From: Ewingella americana ATCC 33852
Lineage (GTDB): Bacteria; Pseudomonadota; Gammaproteobacteria; Enterobacterales; Enterobacteriaceae
Reading direction: 5' to 3'
Length of the DNA stretch: 64,000 bases
Assembly (NCBI RefSeq): GCF_000735345.1
Contig: NZ_JMPJ01000017.1
Span: 62,001-126,000 of the forward strand
In this document: positions 49,772 through 59,651 of the stretch, in pieces
Position numbering within the stretch: position 1 is the first letter of the stretch
Layout of the letters: each line of letters starts with the position of its first letter
The notes under the pieces: generated by a model
What the model was told of the DNA's origin: nothing
Databases searched by the model: none
What the model saw: only the letters and a program-made list of their open reading frames with translations
Translations under genes and position numbers: made by a program

Positions 49772-49785
49772 GAGTGACGCACAGC

Positions 49786-51285
49786 ATGACTGACACGGCG
49801 ACTATGCAAAGCACCATTACTATTCACCCTGCTGATAATGTCGCCGTGGCACTGCGCGATCTCACCTGCGGAGAAATCACCGAAACCGGCACAGCCTTGC
49901 TGCAAGAGGTGGTGCGCGGCCATAAGTTCGCGTTGCGCCCGATTGCCGCCGGAGAGCACATCATCAAATACGGCTTGCCGATTGGTCATGCGCTGGTGGA
50001 CATCGCTGCCGGAGAACACATTCATTCGCAGAATGCCAAAACCAACCTCAGCGATCTCGACGCGTATCAGTACCAGCCGGAATTCGCCGCCGTGCCTGAG
50101 CAAAAGGGCGATCGCGAGGTGCAGATTTACCGCCGCAAAAACGGTCAGGTCGGCATTCGCAACGAGCTGTGGCTGATACCAACCGTCGGCTGCGTGAATG
50201 GCATCGCCAAGCAGATCCAGCAGCGTTTCCTCAAAGAAACCCAGCAGGCTGAAGGCATAGACGGGGTTTACCTGTTCACACATCAACTGGGCTGTTCGCA
50301 GCTCGGCGATGACCATATCAACACCCGCACCATGTTGCAGAACATGGTGCGCCATCCCAACGCGGGCGCGGTGCTGGTGATTGGTTTAGGCTGTGAAAAC
50401 AATCAGGTGGACGTGTTCCGCGACACCTTAGGTGAAGTCGATGAAGCTCGCGTGCGCTTTATGGCGTTGCAGAAATTCGATGATGAAGTTGAGGCGGGCG
50501 TCGCACGTTTGCACGAGCTTTACGCCGCGATGCGCAGTGATCAACGCCAGCCGGGCAAACTGAGCGAGCTGAAATTCGGCTTAGAGTGCGGCGGGTCTGA
50601 CGGGCTGTCGGGCATCACCGCCAACCCGCTGCTCGGGCGTTTTTCGGATTACACCATTGCCAACGGCGGCACCACGGTGCTGACCGAAGTGCCGGAAATG
50701 TTCGGCGCGGAGCGCATTCTGATGAGCCGCTGCCGTGACGAGGCCACCTTCGACAAAACCGTCAGCATGGTGAATGACTTCAAACAATATTTCATTTCCC
50801 ACAACCAGCCGATTTATGAAAACCCGTCGCCGGGCAACAAGGCGGGGGGTATCACTACCCTTGAGGAGAAGTCGCTGGGCTGTACGCAGAAAGCCGGGCA
50901 TAGCCCGATTGTCGACGTGTTGAAGTATGGCGAACGTCTGACCGCGCACGGCTTGAACCTGCTGAGTGCGCCGGGCAACGACGCCGTCGCCACCAGCGCG
51001 CTGGCCGGGGCAGGCTGCCACATGGTGTTGTTTAGCACCGGGCGCGGCACGCCTTATGGCGGCTTTGTGCCGACGATAAAACTGGCCACCAATAGCGAAC
51101 TGGCGGCCAAAAAACCGCACTGGATCGACTTCGACGCCGGGCAGTTGATCCACGGCGTAAGCATGGATCAGCTATTGGACAGCTTTGTGGATCTCATTGT
51201 GAAGATTGCCAGCGGCCAGCAGACCAAGAACGAGCTGAATGATTTTCGCGAGTTGGCGATTTTTAAAAGCGGCGTGACGCTGTAA
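49786..51285 (+). CDS. uxaA: Altronate dehydratase UxaA
   Basis: Converts D-altronate to 2-keto-3-deoxygluconate (499 aa; E. coli 495). N-terminal SAF-like domain with RGHKFAL, then the UxaA family core IRNELWLIPTVGCVNGIA, GCSQLGDDHINTRTML, LECGGSDGLSGITANP and NKAGGITTLEEKSLGC with conserved cysteines. GAGAG precedes the chosen ATG; ATG 49804 is a weaker alternative. uxaB, the reductase between the two steps, is not in the window. Ended by a strong terminator. Confidence 0.96.
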   Translation: MTDTATMQSTITIHPADNVAVALRDLTCGEITETGTALLQEVVRGHKFALRPIAAGEHIIKYGLPIGHALVDIAAGEHIHSQNAKTNLSDLDAYQYQPEFAAVPEQKGDREVQIYRRKNGQVGIRNELWLIPTVGCVNGIAKQIQQRFLKETQQAEGIDGVYLFTHQLGCSQLGDDHINTRTMLQNMVRHPNAGAVLVIGLGCENNQVDVFRDTLGEVDEARVRFMALQKFDDEVEAGVARLHELYAAMRSDQRQPGKLSELKFGLECGGSDGLSGITANPLLGRFSDYTIANGGTTVLTEVPEMFGAERILMSRCRDEATFDKTVSMVNDFKQYFISHNQPIYENPSPGNKAGGITTLEEKSLGCTQKAGHSPIVDVLKYGERLTAHGLNLLSAPGNDAVATSALAGAGCHMVLFSTGRGTPYGGFVPTIKLATNSELAAKKPHWIDFDAGQLIHGVSMDQLLDSFVDLIVKIASGQQTKNELNDFRELAIFKSGVTL

Positions 51286-51337: not shown

Positions 51338-52066
51338 TTAATCCAGCTTCAGCGGCGGCAACTGAGCGAAGATGCTCAGTAGACCTTCCCCCCAGCCTTT
51401 ACGGATCATGTCGAAATACGGATGTTCTTCAGTGATGCGATGCTGTTGTGCCGCACTGTAGCTATCGGTTTGATAAATCATCACGTCCAGCGGCAGGCCC
51501 ACGGAAAGATTACTGCGCAGGGTCGAGTCCATCGAAATCAGCGCGCACTGCATTGCCTGCTCCAGCGGCGTGGTGTAGGTCAGCACGCGGTCGATAATCG
51601 GCTTGCCGTACTTGCTTTCTCCCACTTGGAAATAGGGCGTGTCGTGGGTCGCTTCGATGAAATTGCCCTGCGGATAAACGTGGAACAGCCGCAGCCCTTC
51701 GCCCTTAATCTGCCCGCCTAACAGCAAGTTACAGCTGAAATCGGTCATACCGCCCTGATTGGCGCCGCTGTCGCGGGCAATCACTTCTCTCACCGTTTCC
51801 CCCAGCAGGCTGGCGGCGTCGTACATCGACTCCACGTTGAGCATATTCTCGCGGTCGGGGTCCAGACAGCGGCGGTGCAGCAGGCTGATGATGCTCTGTG
51901 TGGTCGCCAAATTTCCGGCACTTTGGATAACCAGCATCCTCTCATCGCTTTGATGAAAAACATGCAGTTTGCGGAAGGTGGAGATGTGGTCCACCCCGGC
52001 ATTGGTGCGCGAATCTGAGACAAAAACCAGACCAGAGGACAAGCGCATGGCCACACAGTAAGTCAT
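51338..52066 (-). CDS. Anbu: proteasome-type N-terminal nucleophile protease
   Basis: 242-aa protein of the proteasome beta-subunit-like Anbu family (bacterial proteasome-like peptidase). It begins MTYCVAMRLSSGLVFVSDSR: after Met removal Thr1 is the nucleophile, Asp17 fits the proteasome active site and a lysine lies at mature position 32 (FRKLHVF). Other landmarks are VIQSAGNLATTQSI and NLLLGGQIKG. Anbu forms self-assembling rings in the few species studied; substrates are unknown. It is the last gene of a four-gene operon, 28 bp after the transglutaminase-like gene, and has no propeptide or companion ATPase nearby. Confidence 0.92.
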   Translation of the reverse strand: MTYCVAMRLSSGLVFVSDSRTNAGVDHISTFRKLHVFHQSDERMLVIQSAGNLATTQSIISLLHRRCLDPDRENMLNVESMYDAASLLGETVREVIARDSGANQGGMTDFSCNLLLGGQIKGEGLRLFHVYPQGNFIEATHDTPYFQVGESKYGKPIIDRVLTYTTPLEQAMQCALISMDSTLRSNLSVGLPLDVMIYQTDSYSAAQQHRITEEHPYFDMIRKGWGEGLLSIFAQLPPLKLD

Positions 52067-52094
52067 CGAAATCTACCTTTTCAGTAAGTCAGGG

Positions 52095-52889
52095 TCATTG
52101 GGGAATATCGAGCATTTGAACCGCCGCGACGGTATGCATATCTTCGCACCCTCCGCCTAACCGGACGCCACGCACCGGGCACGCATCAAGATAATCGATA
52201 CCAATGGCGAGTTTCAAATGCTGATTAGGCTGGCAGGTGTTGTTGGTCACGTCGAAGCTCTGCCAGTGGCCGTCGAGCCATGCCTCGGCCCAAGCGTGCA
52301 TGGCCACGTGGGTGGAATCCTCGGTGTAGAGATAGCCACTGACGTAGCGCGCCGGGATGCCCAAACTGCGGCAGCAGGCGAGGAACACGTGGGTGTGGTC
52401 CTGACACACTCCCTGTTGGGCGGAAAACGCCTGCGAGGCGCTGTCTTTCACCGTGGTGGTGCCGGGGCTGTAAGGCATTTTCATCAACAGTTCGCCCATC
52501 AAGGCGCGCAGGCTCTCATGCTGGGCCTGCGGGCGATAATAGCGGCTGGCAAAGTCGCGGATCGCGCCGTCGGCCTGCGTCAGCGGGCTGGTGCGCAGGA
52601 AGACCAGCGGCGATAAATGCCCGCAGTTGTCATCCTCGACGTTATCTTCGATTTCCACCACGCCGTTGGCTTCAATGGTGATCGCCTGATGCGGCTGGTC
52701 CAGCGTCAGCACGTGCAGCACGTTGCCATAGGCGTCCAGCGTGCGGGTGGCGAACTCCGGCAGGGTTAAATCCCACGACAAAATCTTCTGATGGCTGGAG
52801 TCCTGTGGGGTGAGGCGCAGATACTGGGTGCTGCGTTTCACCTGCTGGGCATAGGTGTAATGCGTCTGATGACTGACATTAAGCTTCAT
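52095..52889 (-). CDS. Transglutaminase-like cysteine protease of the Anbu operon
   Basis: 264-aa protein with an N-terminal bacterial transglutaminase-like beta domain (HYTYAQQVKRSTQYLRLTP, about 1-85) and a transglutaminase-like catalytic domain. Cys162 (QGVCQDHTHVF), His198 (VAMHAWAEAW) and Asp213 (SFDVTNNT) form the triad. In this family the enzyme probably acts as a peptidase or amidase rather than a crosslinker; this is inference from family knowledge. The start MKLNVSHQTH has GGAGG upstream and overlaps the alpha-E stop by 1 base. Confidence 0.9.
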   Translation of the reverse strand: MKLNVSHQTHYTYAQQVKRSTQYLRLTPQDSSHQKILSWDLTLPEFATRTLDAYGNVLHVLTLDQPHQAITIEANGVVEIEDNVEDDNCGHLSPLVFLRTSPLTQADGAIRDFASRYYRPQAQHESLRALMGELLMKMPYSPGTTTVKDSASQAFSAQQGVCQDHTHVFLACCRSLGIPARYVSGYLYTEDSTHVAMHAWAEAWLDGHWQSFDVTNNTCQPNQHLKLAIGIDYLDACPVRGVRLGGGCEDMHTVAAVQMLDIPQ

Positions 52890-53833
52890 TATTGTGCCTC
52901 CAGATAAGTGTGGTGAATGCTTTCGGCAATGGCATTGGTTTGGCTCAGGAATTGCGCCAGCCATTCGCGCAGGCCCACCGCAAGAATGTCGTCGAGGGTG
53001 CTGAAACGCAGTTCGGCGTGCAGAGTGTGAACCAAGCGGCGCGGCAAGTTGCCGGTGCGCCCGCCAATCAGCTCCAGCTGTTCGGCCATGATCTCCACGC
53101 AGGCCAGCAGCGAGCGCGGCAGTTCGCGGCGCAGGATCAGCAGGTCGGCAATGGTCTCGCGGCTGATTTGCTGCTTATAAAGCGTGTGGAAAGCCTCGCG
53201 GGCGCTGACTGCGCGCAGCAAGGTGTCCATTCGGTAATATTCGCGCACCGGGTCTTCATCGGCGTCGAGCAGCTGGTTTTTGGCGTCCAGCAGCCGAGCC
53301 GTGCTGTCGGCGCGTTCCAGCATGGTGCCAAGGCGAATAAAATAGAGCGCGTCGCTGCGCAGCAGGGTGCCGAACATGGCGCCGCGGAACAGGTGCGAAC
53401 GCTCCTTTACCCAGTCGAAAAAGGCGTCTGCGCCGACCGACGCCACGCCTTGGCGGCGGATCTGCTTCATCTCAATCCACGAGGCGTTAATGCTCTCCCA
53501 CACTTCCGACGACAGGCTGCCGCGCACCGCGTGGGCGTTGTTCCACGCCATCTGCATGCAGCTGAAAATGCTGCTGTGGTTAAGGCTGTCCAGCGCGAAG
53601 AAGTTGAGCAGATTGCTCATGCTGACCTGCGGATAGTTGTCGCTGAACAGCTGGCGGGTGCCGGTGAGGGTCAGCGGCACCAGTAAATCGTTCTGCTCAT
53701 CTTCCAGCTGGGATTTGTCGCGAATAGACATCATCGACAGCTTGTTGGTGACGTCGAGCAGGCGGGCAATGTTCTCGGCGCGCTCCAGATAGCGCGCCAT
53801 CCAGTACAGCTCGCTGGCGGTTCTGCTTAGCAT
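52889..53833 (-). CDS. Alpha-E domain protein (DUF403)
   Basis: 314-aa, almost wholly helical protein of the alpha-E family. It opens with the family signature MLSRTASELYWMARYLERAENIARLLDV (residues 1-28) and has a second similar stretch at LRSDALYFIRLGTMLERADSTARLLD. Alpha-E proteins nearly always accompany circularly permuted ATP-grasp enzymes, as here, and are thought to cooperate with them. The gene overlaps the ATP-grasp gene by 7 bp and the transglutaminase gene by 1 bp. Biochemical role unknown. Confidence 0.9.
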   Translation of the reverse strand: MLSRTASELYWMARYLERAENIARLLDVTNKLSMMSIRDKSQLEDEQNDLLVPLTLTGTRQLFSDNYPQVSMSNLLNFFALDSLNHSSIFSCMQMAWNNAHAVRGSLSSEVWESINASWIEMKQIRRQGVASVGADAFFDWVKERSHLFRGAMFGTLLRSDALYFIRLGTMLERADSTARLLDAKNQLLDADEDPVREYYRMDTLLRAVSAREAFHTLYKQQISRETIADLLILRRELPRSLLACVEIMAEQLELIGGRTGNLPRRLVHTLHAELRFSTLDDILAVGLREWLAQFLSQTNAIAESIHHTYLEAQ

Positions 53834-55293
53834 GCGTCATCCTCCGCAACTTGGCCGTTGACCGGCTCATCCTCTAACACCCAAGTATCTTTGGTCCCGC
53901 CGCCCTGCGACGAGTTGACCACTAGCGAACCTTCGGCCAGCGCCACGCGGGTTAAGCCGCCGGGCACCAGACGCACCTCCGCGCCGGTGAGCGCAAAGGG
54001 GCGCAGGTCGATATGGCGCGGGGCCAGCCCGTTGCCGACAAAGGTCGGGCAGGTGGAGAGCGCCAGCGTTTCCTGCGCGATGTAGTTCTGTGGGCGGGCT
54101 TTGAGCAGTTCGCGGAAACGCTCGATCTCCGCTTTGCTGGCGGTCGGCCCAATCAACATGCCGTAGCCGCCAGCGCCGTGAACCTCCTTCACCACCATTT
54201 TTTCCAGATTCGCTAGCACGAAGCTCAGGGCTTTTTCGTCGCGGCACTGCCACGTCGGCACATTATTGAGGATCGGATCTTCCGCCAGATAGAAGCGAAT
54301 CATCTCCGGCACATAAGGGTAGATGGACTTGTCATCGGCGACGCCGGTGCCGATGGCGTTCGCCAGCACCACGCCACCGGCGCGATAGACCGAAAGTAGC
54401 CCCGGCACGCCGAGCATGGAGTCAGCGCGGAAGGCCAGCGGGTCGAGGAAGGCGTCATCAATGCGGCGGTAAATCACGTCTATTTTGCACGGGCCGGAGG
54501 TGGTACGCATAAACACTGCGCCATCTTTGACAAATAAATCAACGCTTTCCACCAGCTCGACACCCATCTGCTGGGCGAGGAAGCTGTGCTCGAAATAGGC
54601 GCTGTTGAAACGCCCTGGCGTCAGCACCACCACGGTCGGGTCATTGACCGGCGTGCTCTCGCGCAGGGTTTGCAGCAGGTGGGAAGGGTAGCGCGACACC
54701 GGCGCGATGCGCTGCTCGGCGAACAGTTCAGGATAGAGCCGCATCATCATTTTGCGGTTTTCCATCATATAAGAGACGCCGGACGGCGTGCGCAGGTTGT
54801 CTTCCAGCACGTAATATTCGCCATCGCCGCCGCGCACCATGTCGGTTCCGGCGATGTGCGCATAGGTGTTGCGATGCAGATCTACCCCCTGCATGCAAGG
54901 CTGGTACTGCTCGTTGGCGAGCACCTGCTCGGCAGGCACGATGCCTGCTTTGAGTATCTTCTGGTCATGATAGATGTCATGTAGAAAGGCGTTAAGTGCC
55001 TCAACGCGCTGGCGAATGCCGAGATCTAACATCTTCCACTCATTGGCCGGAATGATGCGCGGCACGCTGTCAAACGGAATCAGCCGCTCCGCGCCGTCAT
55101 CCTCGCCATAAACATTAAAGGTAATCCCCACCCGGTGAAACAGCAGCGCGGCTTCCTCTTTTTTGCGCTGTACGGCCTGTTGATCGGCCTGCTGTAACCA
55201 TTGCCAGTAAGCTTGATAATGGTCGCGGTGTTGCCCCTGCGCCATTAGCATTTCATCAAAAAAGGGTGAATCAGAAAGCTCGATATTAATCAT
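53827..55293 (-). CDS. Circularly permuted ATP-grasp enzyme (DUF404/DUF407)
   Basis: 488-aa predicted amide-bond-forming ligase of the circularly permuted ATP-grasp type. Visible motifs are GVDLHRNTYAHIAGTDMVR, YVLEDNLRTPSGVSYMMENR, the glycine loop VVKEVHGAGGYGMLIGP and the late NSSQGGGTKDTWV. ATP-grasp ligases activate a carboxylate as acyl-phosphate and join it to an amine; the substrates here are unknown. The start MINIELSDSP has GAGGTG upstream; 42 further in-frame codons overlap the promoter region. First gene of the operon that continues with alpha-E, transglutaminase-like and Anbu genes. Confidence 0.9.
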   Translation of the reverse strand: MINIELSDSPFFDEMLMAQGQHRDHYQAYWQWLQQADQQAVQRKKEEAALLFHRVGITFNVYGEDDGAERLIPFDSVPRIIPANEWKMLDLGIRQRVEALNAFLHDIYHDQKILKAGIVPAEQVLANEQYQPCMQGVDLHRNTYAHIAGTDMVRGGDGEYYVLEDNLRTPSGVSYMMENRKMMMRLYPELFAEQRIAPVSRYPSHLLQTLRESTPVNDPTVVVLTPGRFNSAYFEHSFLAQQMGVELVESVDLFVKDGAVFMRTTSGPCKIDVIYRRIDDAFLDPLAFRADSMLGVPGLLSVYRAGGVVLANAIGTGVADDKSIYPYVPEMIRFYLAEDPILNNVPTWQCRDEKALSFVLANLEKMVVKEVHGAGGYGMLIGPTASKAEIERFRELLKARPQNYIAQETLALSTCPTFVGNGLAPRHIDLRPFALTGAEVRLVPGGLTRVALAEGSLVVNSSQGGGTKDTWVLEDEPVNGQVAEDDAC

Positions 55294-55425
55294 ATTCACC
55301 TCACTGACAGGACAGGCTGCTTCATTGTTTTTAGATACACACCATGGATCAGGCATAAACCATGCCAGCGTGCAAAAACCCTTCATCATTCGCACTATCT
55401 CTTTGTTGGCTGCACTCATTCACCC

Positions 55426-55500
55426 CAGTCACTTACTTGAGTAAGCTCCTAGGGATTCATGACTTTGCCGCCTCGATATAGCTCGAATGATTTCGGGTTA
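55426..55500 (+). repeat. Probable dispersed intergenic repeat of Yersinia/Serratia type
   Basis: The element contains a small stem (CTTAC-TTGA-GTAAG), then CTCCTAGGGATTCATGACTT, TTGCCGCC, and CTCGAATGATTTCGGGTTA. This order (short variable stem, GGGATTC, TTGCCGCC, CTCGAAT-ATTT-GGGTA) matches a dispersed intergenic motif that I recall from Yersinia and Serratia genomes; the recollection is not checked. Only one copy is seen in this window. Confidence 0.45.
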
Positions 55501-55663
55501 GTGCATAAAAACGTGAGTAAAAGAGGCTATTTCGCGCTATTTCAGTGCGCCAGATAAGGCGGCTGCCTGAATACAGGGCAGAAAACGGGCAGATGTCTTA
55601 AGTATGGTCGCTGATGAGGCAATGACAATGTGGCGGGGAGTGGGGCGGAAAAAGGCATAAAAA

Positions 55664-55683
55664 AGCCAGCCCGCAGGCTGGCT
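55664..55683 (-). terminator. Terminator of ridA (pyrBI-ridA)
   Basis: AGCCAGC / GCTGGCT stem with a 6-base loop; on the minus strand it is followed by six T. Confidence 0.88.
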
Positions 55684-57887: not shown

Positions 57888-59651
57888 TTACCGTTTGAAG
57901 ATTTTCATTCTCCAGCGACGCATGCGCCCCAGACGCTCCGGCGCCTTCAGCTTGTGCTTGATCCACACCACCTGCCACGGCTGGAGACGCGTCTGGCCGT
58001 CGAAAGGCACATCGGCAATCAAATCCTTGCCTTCAATCGCCAGTTTGACCACCTGCGTTTGGTTGCTGATATTGAACACGCAGGTGATTTTGTCTTCCGT
58101 CAGCGGGTCATAGCGCTCCATGGCAAATAGCGATTTCCCCATGTCGAACACCCGCTGTCCGGCCTGTGGCGAGAAGGCCGGATGGGCGCGACGGTGCTTG
58201 ATAAGATTACTCAGCCCGTAAAACACCTTCGAGCTTAGGCTGTTGGTTTTTTCCAGCCCGGCCTCCACTTGGTCCAGCTTGAGCTTCTTGCGATTAATGC
58301 GGCGATTCAGCCCCGACTGGTGCATGCCGTCGAGGTCGTTTTCGCTGCCCAGCAGGCTGTGGATATAGATTGCCGGCACGCCGATGAAGGAGAGCAGCAG
58401 GGCCTGCGCTGCGAGGAATTTGCGCGCTTTGGTGTCGACGTCGTCATCCGGCTCGGTCAGGGCGCTGAGGAAGTTGATGTTCAACTCGTAGGGCGAGTGG
58501 GTGCCGTCGCCGTTGTCTTTGTAGGAGACGCGGCCCTCTTTGCGCAAGGTCTCCTGCGCCATGTATTTGCGTTCATCGTCGCTGAGGAAGGTTTCGGTCG
58601 GGCGCAGGCCGATGCCGTCGTGGCTGGCTAAAAAGTTGAAATAGGTGGTTTCCGGGTAGCGCGCCTCGGCGTTGAGGCTCTGTGCCCACTGGGTTAGCGT
58701 GGTGGTGTCTTGGCGCAGGAAGGCGTGCAGGGTCAGCGGCGGCAGCGGGAACTGGTACACCATGTGGGCTTCGTCGCCTTCGCCAAAGTAGCTGATGTTC
58801 TCGTGATGCGGCACGTTGGTTTCGGTGATCAGCCGCGTGCCGGGGATCACTTCATCCAGAATGGTGCGCCACACCTTGATGATGTTGTGCGCCTGCGGCA
58901 TATGGATACAGCTGGTGCCGACCTCCTTCCAGATGTAGCCAATGGCGTCGAGGCGAATCGACTGCCCGCCGCTGGCGGCGTATTGCAGCAGCACGTCGAT
59001 GCTCTCCAGCAGCACCTGCGGATTTTTGAAATTGATGTCGACCTGATCCTCGCTGAAGGTGGTCCACAGATACAACTCGGTGCCGTCGGCTTTGATAAAT
59101 GGCGTCAGCAGCGGCAGAGCACGGGGGCGCACCACGCGGCTGTAATCCAGCTCTGGGTTGGAGTCGATAAAGTAATCTTTGTAGTAAGGATCGTCGTGCA
59201 GATAGCCTTTCATCCAGTCGCTGGATCGCGAGATGTGGTTGATCACGCAGTCAAACATCAGGTTGAAGTGAGAAGAGAGCTGGTGGATGTCCTGCCAACC
59301 GCCAAGATGTTCGTCAATCCGGCGATAATCAATGACGCTGAAACCATCATCCGAGCTGTAGGGATACATCGGTAAGATGTGGATATCGCTGATGATTTCA
59401 CGCAGATACTTGTCGGCGAAATGGTTCAACGTCGCCAGCGGTTTCTGCTCGCCGTGGCTGATATTGTCGCCATAGGTGATGAGGTAAATGTTGGTGCCAT
59501 CGACCCAATCCTGAGTGCGATGTTTGCCGTAATTCCACTTTTCGGCCAGTTGCAGGATCTGTTTCAGTAAATCGGCAATGTGTTCTCTGGGATAGATCCG
59601 GCTCAGTAAACTTTCCAGTCGCAAGACATATTCCAAATTGACTGATTTCAT
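57888..59651 (-). CDS. GH13_18 sucrose/glucosylglycerate phosphorylase-like enzyme
   Basis: 587-aa alpha-amylase-superfamily enzyme of the sucrose phosphorylase group. The nucleophile Asp lies in SIRLDAIGYIWKE, the acid/base Glu in LITETNVPHHENISYFG, and the third acid in FLASHDGIGLRPTE. Closest by recall is E. coli YcjM (glucosylglycerate phosphorylase), sharing GTSCIH, VRPRALPLLTPF and WTTFSEDQVDINF. It would split an alpha-glucoside with phosphate, giving glucose 1-phosphate and an acceptor. It stands alone, with no transporter or kinase beside it, between pyrL and the ornithine carbamoyltransferase gene. The basic tail RLGRMRRWRMKIFKR is unusual. Confidence 0.82.
   Translation of the reverse strand: MKSVNLEYVLRLESLLSRIYPREHIADLLKQILQLAEKWNYGKHRTQDWVDGTNIYLITYGDNISHGEQKPLATLNHFADKYLREIISDIHILPMYPYSSDDGFSVIDYRRIDEHLGGWQDIHQLSSHFNLMFDCVINHISRSSDWMKGYLHDDPYYKDYFIDSNPELDYSRVVRPRALPLLTPFIKADGTELYLWTTFSEDQVDINFKNPQVLLESIDVLLQYAASGGQSIRLDAIGYIWKEVGTSCIHMPQAHNIIKVWRTILDEVIPGTRLITETNVPHHENISYFGEGDEAHMVYQFPLPPLTLHAFLRQDTTTLTQWAQSLNAEARYPETTYFNFLASHDGIGLRPTETFLSDDERKYMAQETLRKEGRVSYKDNGDGTHSPYELNINFLSALTEPDDDVDTKARKFLAAQALLLSFIGVPAIYIHSLLGSENDLDGMHQSGLNRRINRKKLKLDQVEAGLEKTNSLSSKVFYGLSNLIKHRRAHPAFSPQAGQRVFDMGKSLFAMERYDPLTEDKITCVFNISNQTQVVKLAIEGKDLIADVPFDGQTRLQPWQVVWIKHKLKAPERLGRMRRWRMKIFKR

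What the first reader, a model, noticed from the sequence alone, without database searches (positions are those of the whole stretch)
51338..55293. Complete four-gene Anbu operon: ATP-grasp ligase, alpha-E, transglutaminase-like protease, proteasome-like Anbu
Seen: four minus-strand genes with junctions of -7, -1 and +28 bp, all with intact catalytic motifs. Known: Anbu is a bacterial proteasome-like peptidase often encoded with these three families, and ATP-grasp/amidoligase clusters have been predicted to make or modify peptides. Inference: the ATP-grasp/alpha-E pair ligates amino acids or peptides to an acceptor and the two hydrolases process or recycle the product. No substrate, tag or product is established, and no unfoldase ATPase or tagged small protein is encoded nearby.
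Basis: partly seen in the sequence, partly recalled or inferred. Interest (0 to 1): 0.85.

Follow-up and report, generated by a model that had tools for sequence, protein, structure and literature searches.

The report
Nitrogen-starvation-controlled Anbu ligase–protease operon
The four genes are a real, intact copy of an already described bacterial gene set of unknown job that probably joins and cuts amide bonds, and its on-switch in many relatives looks like the standard nitrogen-starvation switch, which tells experimenters when to look for what it makes.

Summary
Window 55293-51338 (-) encodes a circularly permuted ATP-grasp ligase, Alpha-E, a transglutaminase-like cysteine hydrolase and Anbu, junctions -7, -1 and +28 bp, catalytic residues intact. 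The set is not new: the same four-gene order is published, with Anbu structures and an ATPase assay (PMC6376114, PMC5666114). The useful addition lies upstream. A sigma54 (-24/-12) site precedes the ATP-grasp gene in 78 of 90 loci with a close ATP-grasp gene (control ORFs 28 of 1299), and NtrC-type palindromes in 49 of 95 (control 30 of 1255), with sharp spacing controls. Loci without Anbu carry the site as often. Published data for a Burkholderia and a Pseudomonas operon agree, except that induction persisted in a P. putida rpoN mutant. In the window the sigma54 site is present, but no NtrC box above chance is found, and a strain-specific insert of about 123 bp with an interspersed repeat sits just upstream. 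Best reading: a nitrogen-starvation-induced amide ligase/hydrolase module. The substrate is unknown, no tag or unfoldase lies in the operon, and Anbu's activity is undemonstrated. Known kind of system; the conserved regulation makes its function testable.

The parts
53827..55293 (-). Circularly permuted ATP-grasp ligase (CP_ATPgrasp_2), gene 1
   Evidence: PF14403 4e-165; solved relative 3n6x 5e-209; E164/N166/K369 and glycine loop invariant in 36 of 36
52889..53833 (-). Alpha-E helical protein, gene 2 (7-bp overlap with gene 1)
   Evidence: PF04168 1e-84; R14/E17/R18, R104, R150, E173, E213, R240 invariant in 48 of 48; all-helical AF2 model pLDDT 90.3
52095..52889 (-). Transglutaminase-like cysteine hydrolase, gene 3 (1-bp overlap)
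   Evidence: PF01841 and PF08379; C162/H198/D213 invariant in 26 of 26
51338..52066 (-). Anbu, proteasome-like N-terminal-nucleophile subunit, gene 4
   Evidence: Best solved match 5nyw 3e-133; T2/D18/K33 invariant in 30 of 30
55352..55368 (-). Sigma54 (-24/-12) promoter site CTGGCATGGTTTATGCC, 10 of 13 to consensus, 75 bp before the ATP-grasp ATG
   Evidence: a site at 9 of 13 or better in 41 of 41 Enterobacterales-type loci (L001-L040, L044); motif 1.55 bits per fixed column against 0.25 in the flanks
55533..55549 (-). Degenerate NtrC-like box CGCACTGAAATAGCGCG, aligned with the boxes of Rouxiella and Rahnella laticis; by score alone not above chance
   Evidence: Position in the alignment; 7 of 12 counted by eye. 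One search found no better than 7 of 12 in the window's 210-bp search range, which 91 of 100 shuffles reach
55380..55502 (.). About 123-bp insertion between that box and the sigma54 site, containing one copy (55420-55449) of an interspersed repeat; ends approximate
   Evidence: Absent in the 5 relatives aligned; repeat 11 copies in the genome, 0 for the reversed-pattern control; the repeat pattern in no other locus then held
55664..55683 (-). Terminator-like hairpin after ridA, which would separate it from the operon
   Evidence: pattern match; 4 such sites in the region against 4.7 in shuffles, so weak evidence

Best explanation
It is the known Anbu operon, and in many beta/gammaproteobacteria it is a nitrogen-starvation operon. 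Under nitrogen limitation phosphorylated NtrC bound upstream activates sigma54 polymerase at the -24/-12 site before the ATP-grasp gene (sites shown here by sequence; nitrogen-dependent expression in print for one Pseudomonas and one Burkholderia operon; inferred for this strain). The ATP-grasp enzyme makes an acyl-phosphate and joins it to an amine, giving an amide (family chemistry; phosphate release from ATP is in print for the Y. bercovieri enzyme). Alpha-E is its constant partner, sometimes fused to it, and probably helps bind substrate (inferred). The cysteine hydrolase and the Anbu Ntn-hydrolase act on the opposite side, opening amide or isopeptide bonds of the product or of what it is attached to, so that nitrogen is reversibly conjugated or recovered (inferred). 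The ligase/Alpha-E pair is the core; Anbu is an add-on, since loci without Anbu have the same promoter.
Against: In P. putida the induction persisted in an rpoN mutant (14- to 20-fold) and Anbu itself (PP_2685) rose only 1.1-fold in wild type (PMC7801951 table). The window has no NtrC box above chance, and of its 8 closest named relatives (L002-L007, L039, L044) only L006 reaches 10 of 12. Divergent ATP-grasp loci (45-65% identity) have the sigma54 site in only 8 of 45, so the link is not universal, and the full four-gene Anbu operon of B. cenocepacia (L177) has neither site at 10 or better. Y. bercovieri Anbu cleaved no tested substrate, showed no specific binding of its operon partners and did not stimulate the ATP-grasp protein (PMC6376114, passages). 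No gene beside the operon recurs in more than 7 of 52 groups. The fused ATP-grasp/Alpha-E model has pTM 0.65, so the contact is not resolved.
Confidence: 0.55

Rival explanations
1. Tag-and-degrade system: ATP-grasp/Alpha-E attaches an amino acid or peptide to proteins, and Anbu (or the cysteine hydrolase) removes the tag or degrades the tagged protein, as a proteobacterial counterpart of pupylation used in nitrogen starvation.
For: Anbu is proteasome-like with an intact Thr/Asp/Lys site; nitrogen control fits protein recycling; tagging was proposed in print (reported in PMC6376114 passages).
Against: No AAA unfoldase and no tag gene recognised in the operon, published negative peptidase and pull-down results (PMC6376114), an open-ring particle rather than a closed barrel (PMC5666114, PMC8665760 passages). 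Loci without Anbu carry the same promoter (21 of 23).
Confidence: 0.2
2. Small-molecule amide cycle: the ligase makes a soluble conjugate, such as a gamma-glutamyl, peptide or polyamine amide, and the hydrolases release it, like glutathionylspermidine synthetase/amidase; the purpose is uptake, storage or detoxification of nitrogen compounds.
For: Closest folds after 3n6x are glutathione, glutathionylspermidine and trypanothione synthetases, E. coli YgiC/YjfC and the pseudodipeptide ligase Cp1B (PMC12568646 passages). Marine metagenome correlation of these domains with urea-metabolism domains (PMC3597751 passages).
Against: No transporter, oxidase or other catabolic gene is constant beside the operon (an ABC ATPase gene recurs in 5 of 52 groups); a 12-subunit proteasome-like particle seems elaborate for a small amide.
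Confidence: 0.4
3. Peptide or RiPP-like product: the operon makes a secreted or signalling peptide from a ribosomal precursor encoded elsewhere.
For: ATP-grasp ligases make graspetides (PMC8939145, search listing and start of abstract only); a peptide-synthesis system was suggested in print (reported in PMC5666114 passages).
Against: No room for a precursor ORF in the junctions (28 bp or less); between ridA and the ATP-grasp gene only one short ORF (38 aa, 55542-55658) reads along the operon strand entirely before the promoter and another (27 aa) overlaps the site (conservation not tested); no exporter constant next to it; the graspetide enzyme PsnB is only a weak Foldseek match (E 0.05).
Confidence: 0.1

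Closest known systems
Anbu operon of Yersinia bercovieri and Pseudomonas (PMC6376114, PMC5666114; passages)
   Same: Same four families in the same order; Anbu 82-84% identical to the Yersinia copies held (L009/L011/L014); same catalytic residues.
   Different: Window copy has a strain-specific insert upstream of its promoter; the promoter itself is not discussed in the passages of those papers that I read.
Burkholderia cenocepacia I35_5080-83 cluster (PMC5491218; passages)
   Same: ATP-grasp, Alpha-E and transglutaminase genes; reported sigma54- and NtrC-dependent; the copy with that gene order in a related record has both sites.
   Different: No Anbu named among the four; a large transglutaminase protein instead (in L061 such a protein carries DUF2126).
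E. coli glutathionylspermidine synthetase/amidase and eukaryotic glutathione/trypanothione synthetases
   Different: 9-14% identity; here ligase and hydrolase are separate genes, the hydrolase is transglutaminase-like, and Alpha-E and Anbu have no counterpart (recalled).
Pup-proteasome system of actinobacteria (recalled)
   Same: Proteasome-like peptidase working with an amide-forming ligase; use in nitrogen starvation (recalled).
   Different: No Pup-like tag, PafA/Dop or AAA unfoldase recognised in the operon; Anbu particle is open (PMC5666114 passages).

Membership tests
Anbu | N-terminal Thr after Met, Asp17 and Lys33 of the mature protein | tested here: met
   T2, D18, K33 (counting Met) in 30 of 30 aligned and 98 of 99 copies, one Ser
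Anbu | Sequence closest to solved Anbu rather than HslV or 20S beta | tested here: met
   The five best solved matches are entries labelled Peptidase, Designed Anbu Protein or Anbu, the sixth a proteasome alpha subunit at 2e-4 (that 5nyw and 5lox are Anbu is recalled, 5lox also named Anbu in PMC8665760)
Anbu | Open-ring multimer | not testable with these tools
   Published for relatives (PMC6376114, PMC5666114, PMC8665760 passages)
Anbu | Peptidase activity | not testable with these tools
   Negative in print for YbAnbu, HyAnbu and PaAnbu with standard substrates (PMC6376114)
Anbu four-gene operon | Order ATP-grasp, Alpha-E, transglutaminase-like, Anbu on one strand | tested here: met
   same order in many relatives
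Circularly permuted ATP-grasp ligase | Family profile, ATP-binding and Mg residues, glutathione-synthetase-like fold | tested here: met
Circularly permuted ATP-grasp ligase | Makes an amide bond | not testable with these tools
   Phosphate release from ATP is published (PMC6376114 passages); I saw no amide product reported
Transglutaminase-like hydrolase | Cys-His-Asp triad | tested here: met
   C162/H198/D213 in 26 of 26
Alpha-E | Family profile with conserved ER motif | tested here: met
   PF04168 1e-84; E17-R18 in 48 of 48
Alpha-E | A known fold | tested here: inconclusive
   Confident helical model, no match above the level common for helical bundles
NtrC-sigma54 promoter | -24/-12 site with GG-N10-GC before the first gene | tested here: met
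   Window 55368-55352, 10 of 13; a site at 9 or better in 41 of 41 Enterobacterales-type loci
NtrC-sigma54 promoter | NtrC palindrome upstream | tested here: inconclusive
   49 of 95 relatives at 10 of 12 or better; in the window nothing above chance (7 of 12), only an aligned degenerate box behind an insert
NtrC-sigma54 promoter | Induction in nitrogen starvation dependent on ntrC and rpoN | not testable with these tools
   In print: yes for B. cenocepacia; P. putida induced but still induced in an rpoN mutant (PMC5491218, PMC7801951)
Pup-proteasome-like tagging | Tag protein and AAA unfoldase encoded with it | tested here: not met
   No such gene in the operon; elsewhere in the genome not tested
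Glutathionylspermidine synthetase/amidase | Ligase fused to an amidase | tested here: not met
   Ligase and cysteine hydrolase are separate genes

The most novel reading that the evidence does not exclude
The ATP-grasp/Alpha-E set, with or without Anbu, is a core member of the NtrC regulon of beta/gammaproteobacteria. It runs a yet unseen reversible amide-conjugation system that lets cells recycle protein or amine nitrogen in starvation, a proteobacterial counterpart of pupylation with a proteasome relative as its hydrolase.
Probability: 0.2. Interest if true: 0.85.

Novelty: new member of a known kind. Interest (0 to 1): 0.45.

Why it matters
The job of Anbu, a proteasome relative proposed as ancestral, has been open since it was named in 2008 (PMC5666114, PMC8665760 passages): no substrate is known. 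A nitrogen-starvation promoter conserved across many beta/gammaproteobacteria, present also where no Anbu was found, says when the system is made and suggests that the ligase/Alpha-E pair is its core. Product hunting in nitrogen-starved wild type against deletion strains becomes a direct test.

Tried and rejected
Upstream start of the ATP-grasp gene (55419): rejected, it lies before the sigma54 site and inside the insert. Insert as a coding extension: rejected, absent in the relatives compared. Alpha-E fold: Foldseek against PDB gave no match at E 0.001 or better; the best second-look Z, 8.8 (NasR), is within what helical bundles give, so I draw nothing from it. Fused ATP-grasp/Alpha-E model: pTM 0.65, domain contact not used. 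Conserved neighbours: the widest families are a short-chain dehydrogenase (7 of 52 groups), an ABC ATPase and a Peptidase_Mx protein (5 each), the transglutaminase/DUF2126 protein and a response regulator (4 each); none constant enough to be a substrate. Separated Anbu genes: in the three loci whose neighbours I looked up (L165, L167, L169) they are genes such as mutS, a histidine kinase and recQ, and none of ten Anbu genes tested has a sigma54 site at 10 of 13 or better within 250 bp. Short ORFs before the operon were listed but not tested for conservation. The sigma70 scan gave 6 weak sites against 2.2 expected, not used. Iyer 2009 and Hervas 2009 are not held; what I say of them is from citing papers. 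A DUF407 hit in a Nodularia paper was a false text match. Papers on K. oxytoca and P. stutzeri gave nothing on these genes, one on Caulobacter another transglutaminase, one on P. pseudoalcaligenes two unplaced transglutaminase proteins, one on Paraburkholderia phymatum nothing. A cross-phylum test (NtcA in cyanobacteria, GlnR in actinobacteria) was not tried: I saw no way to reach such genomes. One search scored sites with a slip in the comparison order; onward uses the corrected score, and no count is taken. One search's control still included the operon genes; the clean control is.
Full report
What is there. Four minus-strand genes lie at window 55293-51338 exactly as described, with family assignments confirmed by Pfam and by nearest solved chains: 3n6x for the ATP-grasp protein, 3isr for the transglutaminase-like protein, 5nyw and other Anbu entries for Anbu; Alpha-E has no solved relative by sequence at E below 0.6. 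The host is near Rahnella and Rouxiella: the ATP-grasp protein is 92-94% identical to theirs. The window lies on contig C17 of a 92-contig, 4.87-Mb genome.

Intactness. Catalytic residues are invariant in the aligned relatives: Anbu T2/D18/K33 in 30 of 30, transglutaminase C162/H198/D213 in 26 of 26, ATP-grasp D151, R154, E164, N166, K369, E370 and the glycine loop in 36 of 36, Alpha-E R14/E17/R18/R150/E173/E213/R240 in 48 of 48. These alignments used chosen, diverse members of the 80 loci, not all. Over the Anbu copies in the loci then held (L082-L111 dropped as duplicates; matches from residue 1 and over 180 residues only) 98 of 99 keep Thr/Asp/Lys and one has Ser. None of the 86 Anbu matches in the phylum sample shows an internal stop; one (G149) is a fragment of 39 residues.

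Distribution. In a phylum sample of 249 genomes Alpha-E is in 132 and Anbu in 85; 84 of the 85 also have Alpha-E, the exception being G094. In an order sample of 247 Alpha-E is in 30 and Anbu in 13, all 13 with Alpha-E. Fisher p values are 2e-30 and 8e-14; related genomes are not independent. Within the window's family 4 of 18 genomes have both and 14 have neither (three of the 14 are genomes of about 1 Mb). Of 86 Anbu copies 72 lie within 8 kb of Alpha-E on the same contig, 48 of them on the same strand at 828-1174 bp; the other 14 are farther away, on other contigs, or without Alpha-E. Alpha-E without Anbu is common (48 of 132). So Anbu depends on the ligase/Alpha-E set, not the reverse. The operon has no blastn match in 5,426 E. 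coli genomes.

The promoter. Upstream of the ATP-grasp start stands a sigma54 site, in the window CTGGCATGGTTTATGCC at 55368-55352. I scored a region from -120 to +30 of the expected first residue for YTGGCACG-N4-TTGCW with GG and GC required. Of 137 loci with a usable ATP-grasp match two (L080, L137) were too short and dropped; L082-L111 were left out as duplicates or single-gene stretches. 86 of 135 reach 10 of 13. Changing only the spacing to 8, 9, 11 or 12 gives 4, 1, 4 and 3. With ATP-grasp identity of at least 65% it is 78 of 90; at 45-65% it is 8 of 45; mechanical ORFs of 150 aa or more in the same loci, not overlapping the operon genes, 28 of 1299. Most named loci of the first group are titled as beta- or gammaproteobacteria. 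Collapsed at 80% identity, 16 of 52 clusters have the site in at least half of their members. In 41 Enterobacterales-type loci (one of them, L029, is titled a betaproteobacterial MAG) all 41 have a site at 9 or better, and the fixed motif columns hold 1.55 bits against 0.25 in the flanks, which looks like selection rather than shared ancestry.

The activator. Within 220 bp upstream of the site, a palindrome TGCACC-N5-GGTGCA at 10 of 12 or better is found in 49 of 95 loci with a site (about 1 expected from shuffles); half-site spacers of 2, 3, 4, 6, 7 and 8 give 6, 2, 2, 2, 4 and 4 of 95, and upstreams of mechanical ORFs 30 of 1255. This is the NtrC box as given in PMC8743547 (passages). It is perfect (12 of 12) in L016, L017, L018, L020 and L022 (Pantoea, Erwinia and a record titled Enterobacter cancerogenus). 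The window itself reaches only 7 of 12, no better than shuffles, and among its eight closest named relatives (L002-L007, L039, L044) only L006 reaches 10.

Independent support and a contrary result. PMC5491218 (passages) reports I35_5080-83 of B. cenocepacia as sigma54- and NtrC-dependent. In a B. cenocepacia record with four ATP-grasp places, only the place with that gene order has both sites (11 of 13; 11 of 12); the complete Anbu operon there has neither at 10 or better. PMC7801951 (passages and table) reports PP_2686-2688 of P. putida up 11- to 15-fold in nitrogen limitation and assigns PP_2685-2688 to NtrB/NtrC after Hervas 2009, which I could not read. But the same table shows 14- to 20-fold induction of PP_2686-2688 in an rpoN mutant and only 1.1-fold for Anbu itself in wild type. 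PMC6376114 (passages) notes that Anbu is highly expressed in nitrogen starvation. That the promoter is conserved across many beta/gammaproteobacteria, with or without Anbu, I did not find in print in paper searches; most subscription papers are not in that library.

The window's own variant. The five relatives aligned lack a stretch of about 123 bp (55380-55502) that here separates the sigma54 site from a degenerate NtrC-like box at 55549-55533, which lines up with the boxes of Rouxiella aceris (9 of 12) and Rahnella laticis (10 of 12). The stretch carries one of 11 genomic copies of a repeat whose pattern was in no other locus then held. NtrC acts at a distance (recalled), so the effect on expression is open.

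Verdict. The value lies in the conserved nitrogen-starvation control, which gives the condition under which to look for the product.

Noticed in passing
window 55420-55449 and 10 further genomic places: Interspersed repeat (GGAGCTTACTnnAGTAAGTGACTGGGGTGA-like), 11 copies in the genome at up to 2 mismatches, one of them in the operon's promoter region. Its wider unit was not defined.
   Followed up: partly
L060, L061, L062; G031, G081, G141: Variant operons in which Anbu follows Alpha-E without the small transglutaminase in between; in L061 a 1109-aa transglutaminase/DUF2126 protein and in L156 (G081) a transglutaminase-like protein follows Anbu.
   Followed up: partly
G019, G082, G196, G207, G225, G231, G246 (family f9): Anbu separated from the Alpha-E genes in the same genome in all seven; in G196 (L165) it lies next to mutS.
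   Followed up: partly
L177, L184, L185 (B. cenocepacia record): Four ATP-grasp places in one replicon, of which only one carries the NtrC/sigma54 sites: a natural set for comparing paralogues.
   Followed up: partly
window 57888-59651 (-): A sucrose-phosphorylase-like glycoside hydrolase gene (best NCBIfam model below its cut-off) stands between pyrB and argF-type genes.
   Followed up: no
window 49774-51285 (+): Altronate/galactarate dehydratase-type gene (best model below its cut-off) convergent with Anbu, after a glucuronate isomerase gene; its homologue is convergent with Anbu in several Rahnella/Rouxiella loci too.
   Followed up: no
L050: Kushneria locus lacks the site before ATP-grasp but has one (12 of 13) before the transglutaminase-like gene.
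   Followed up: no
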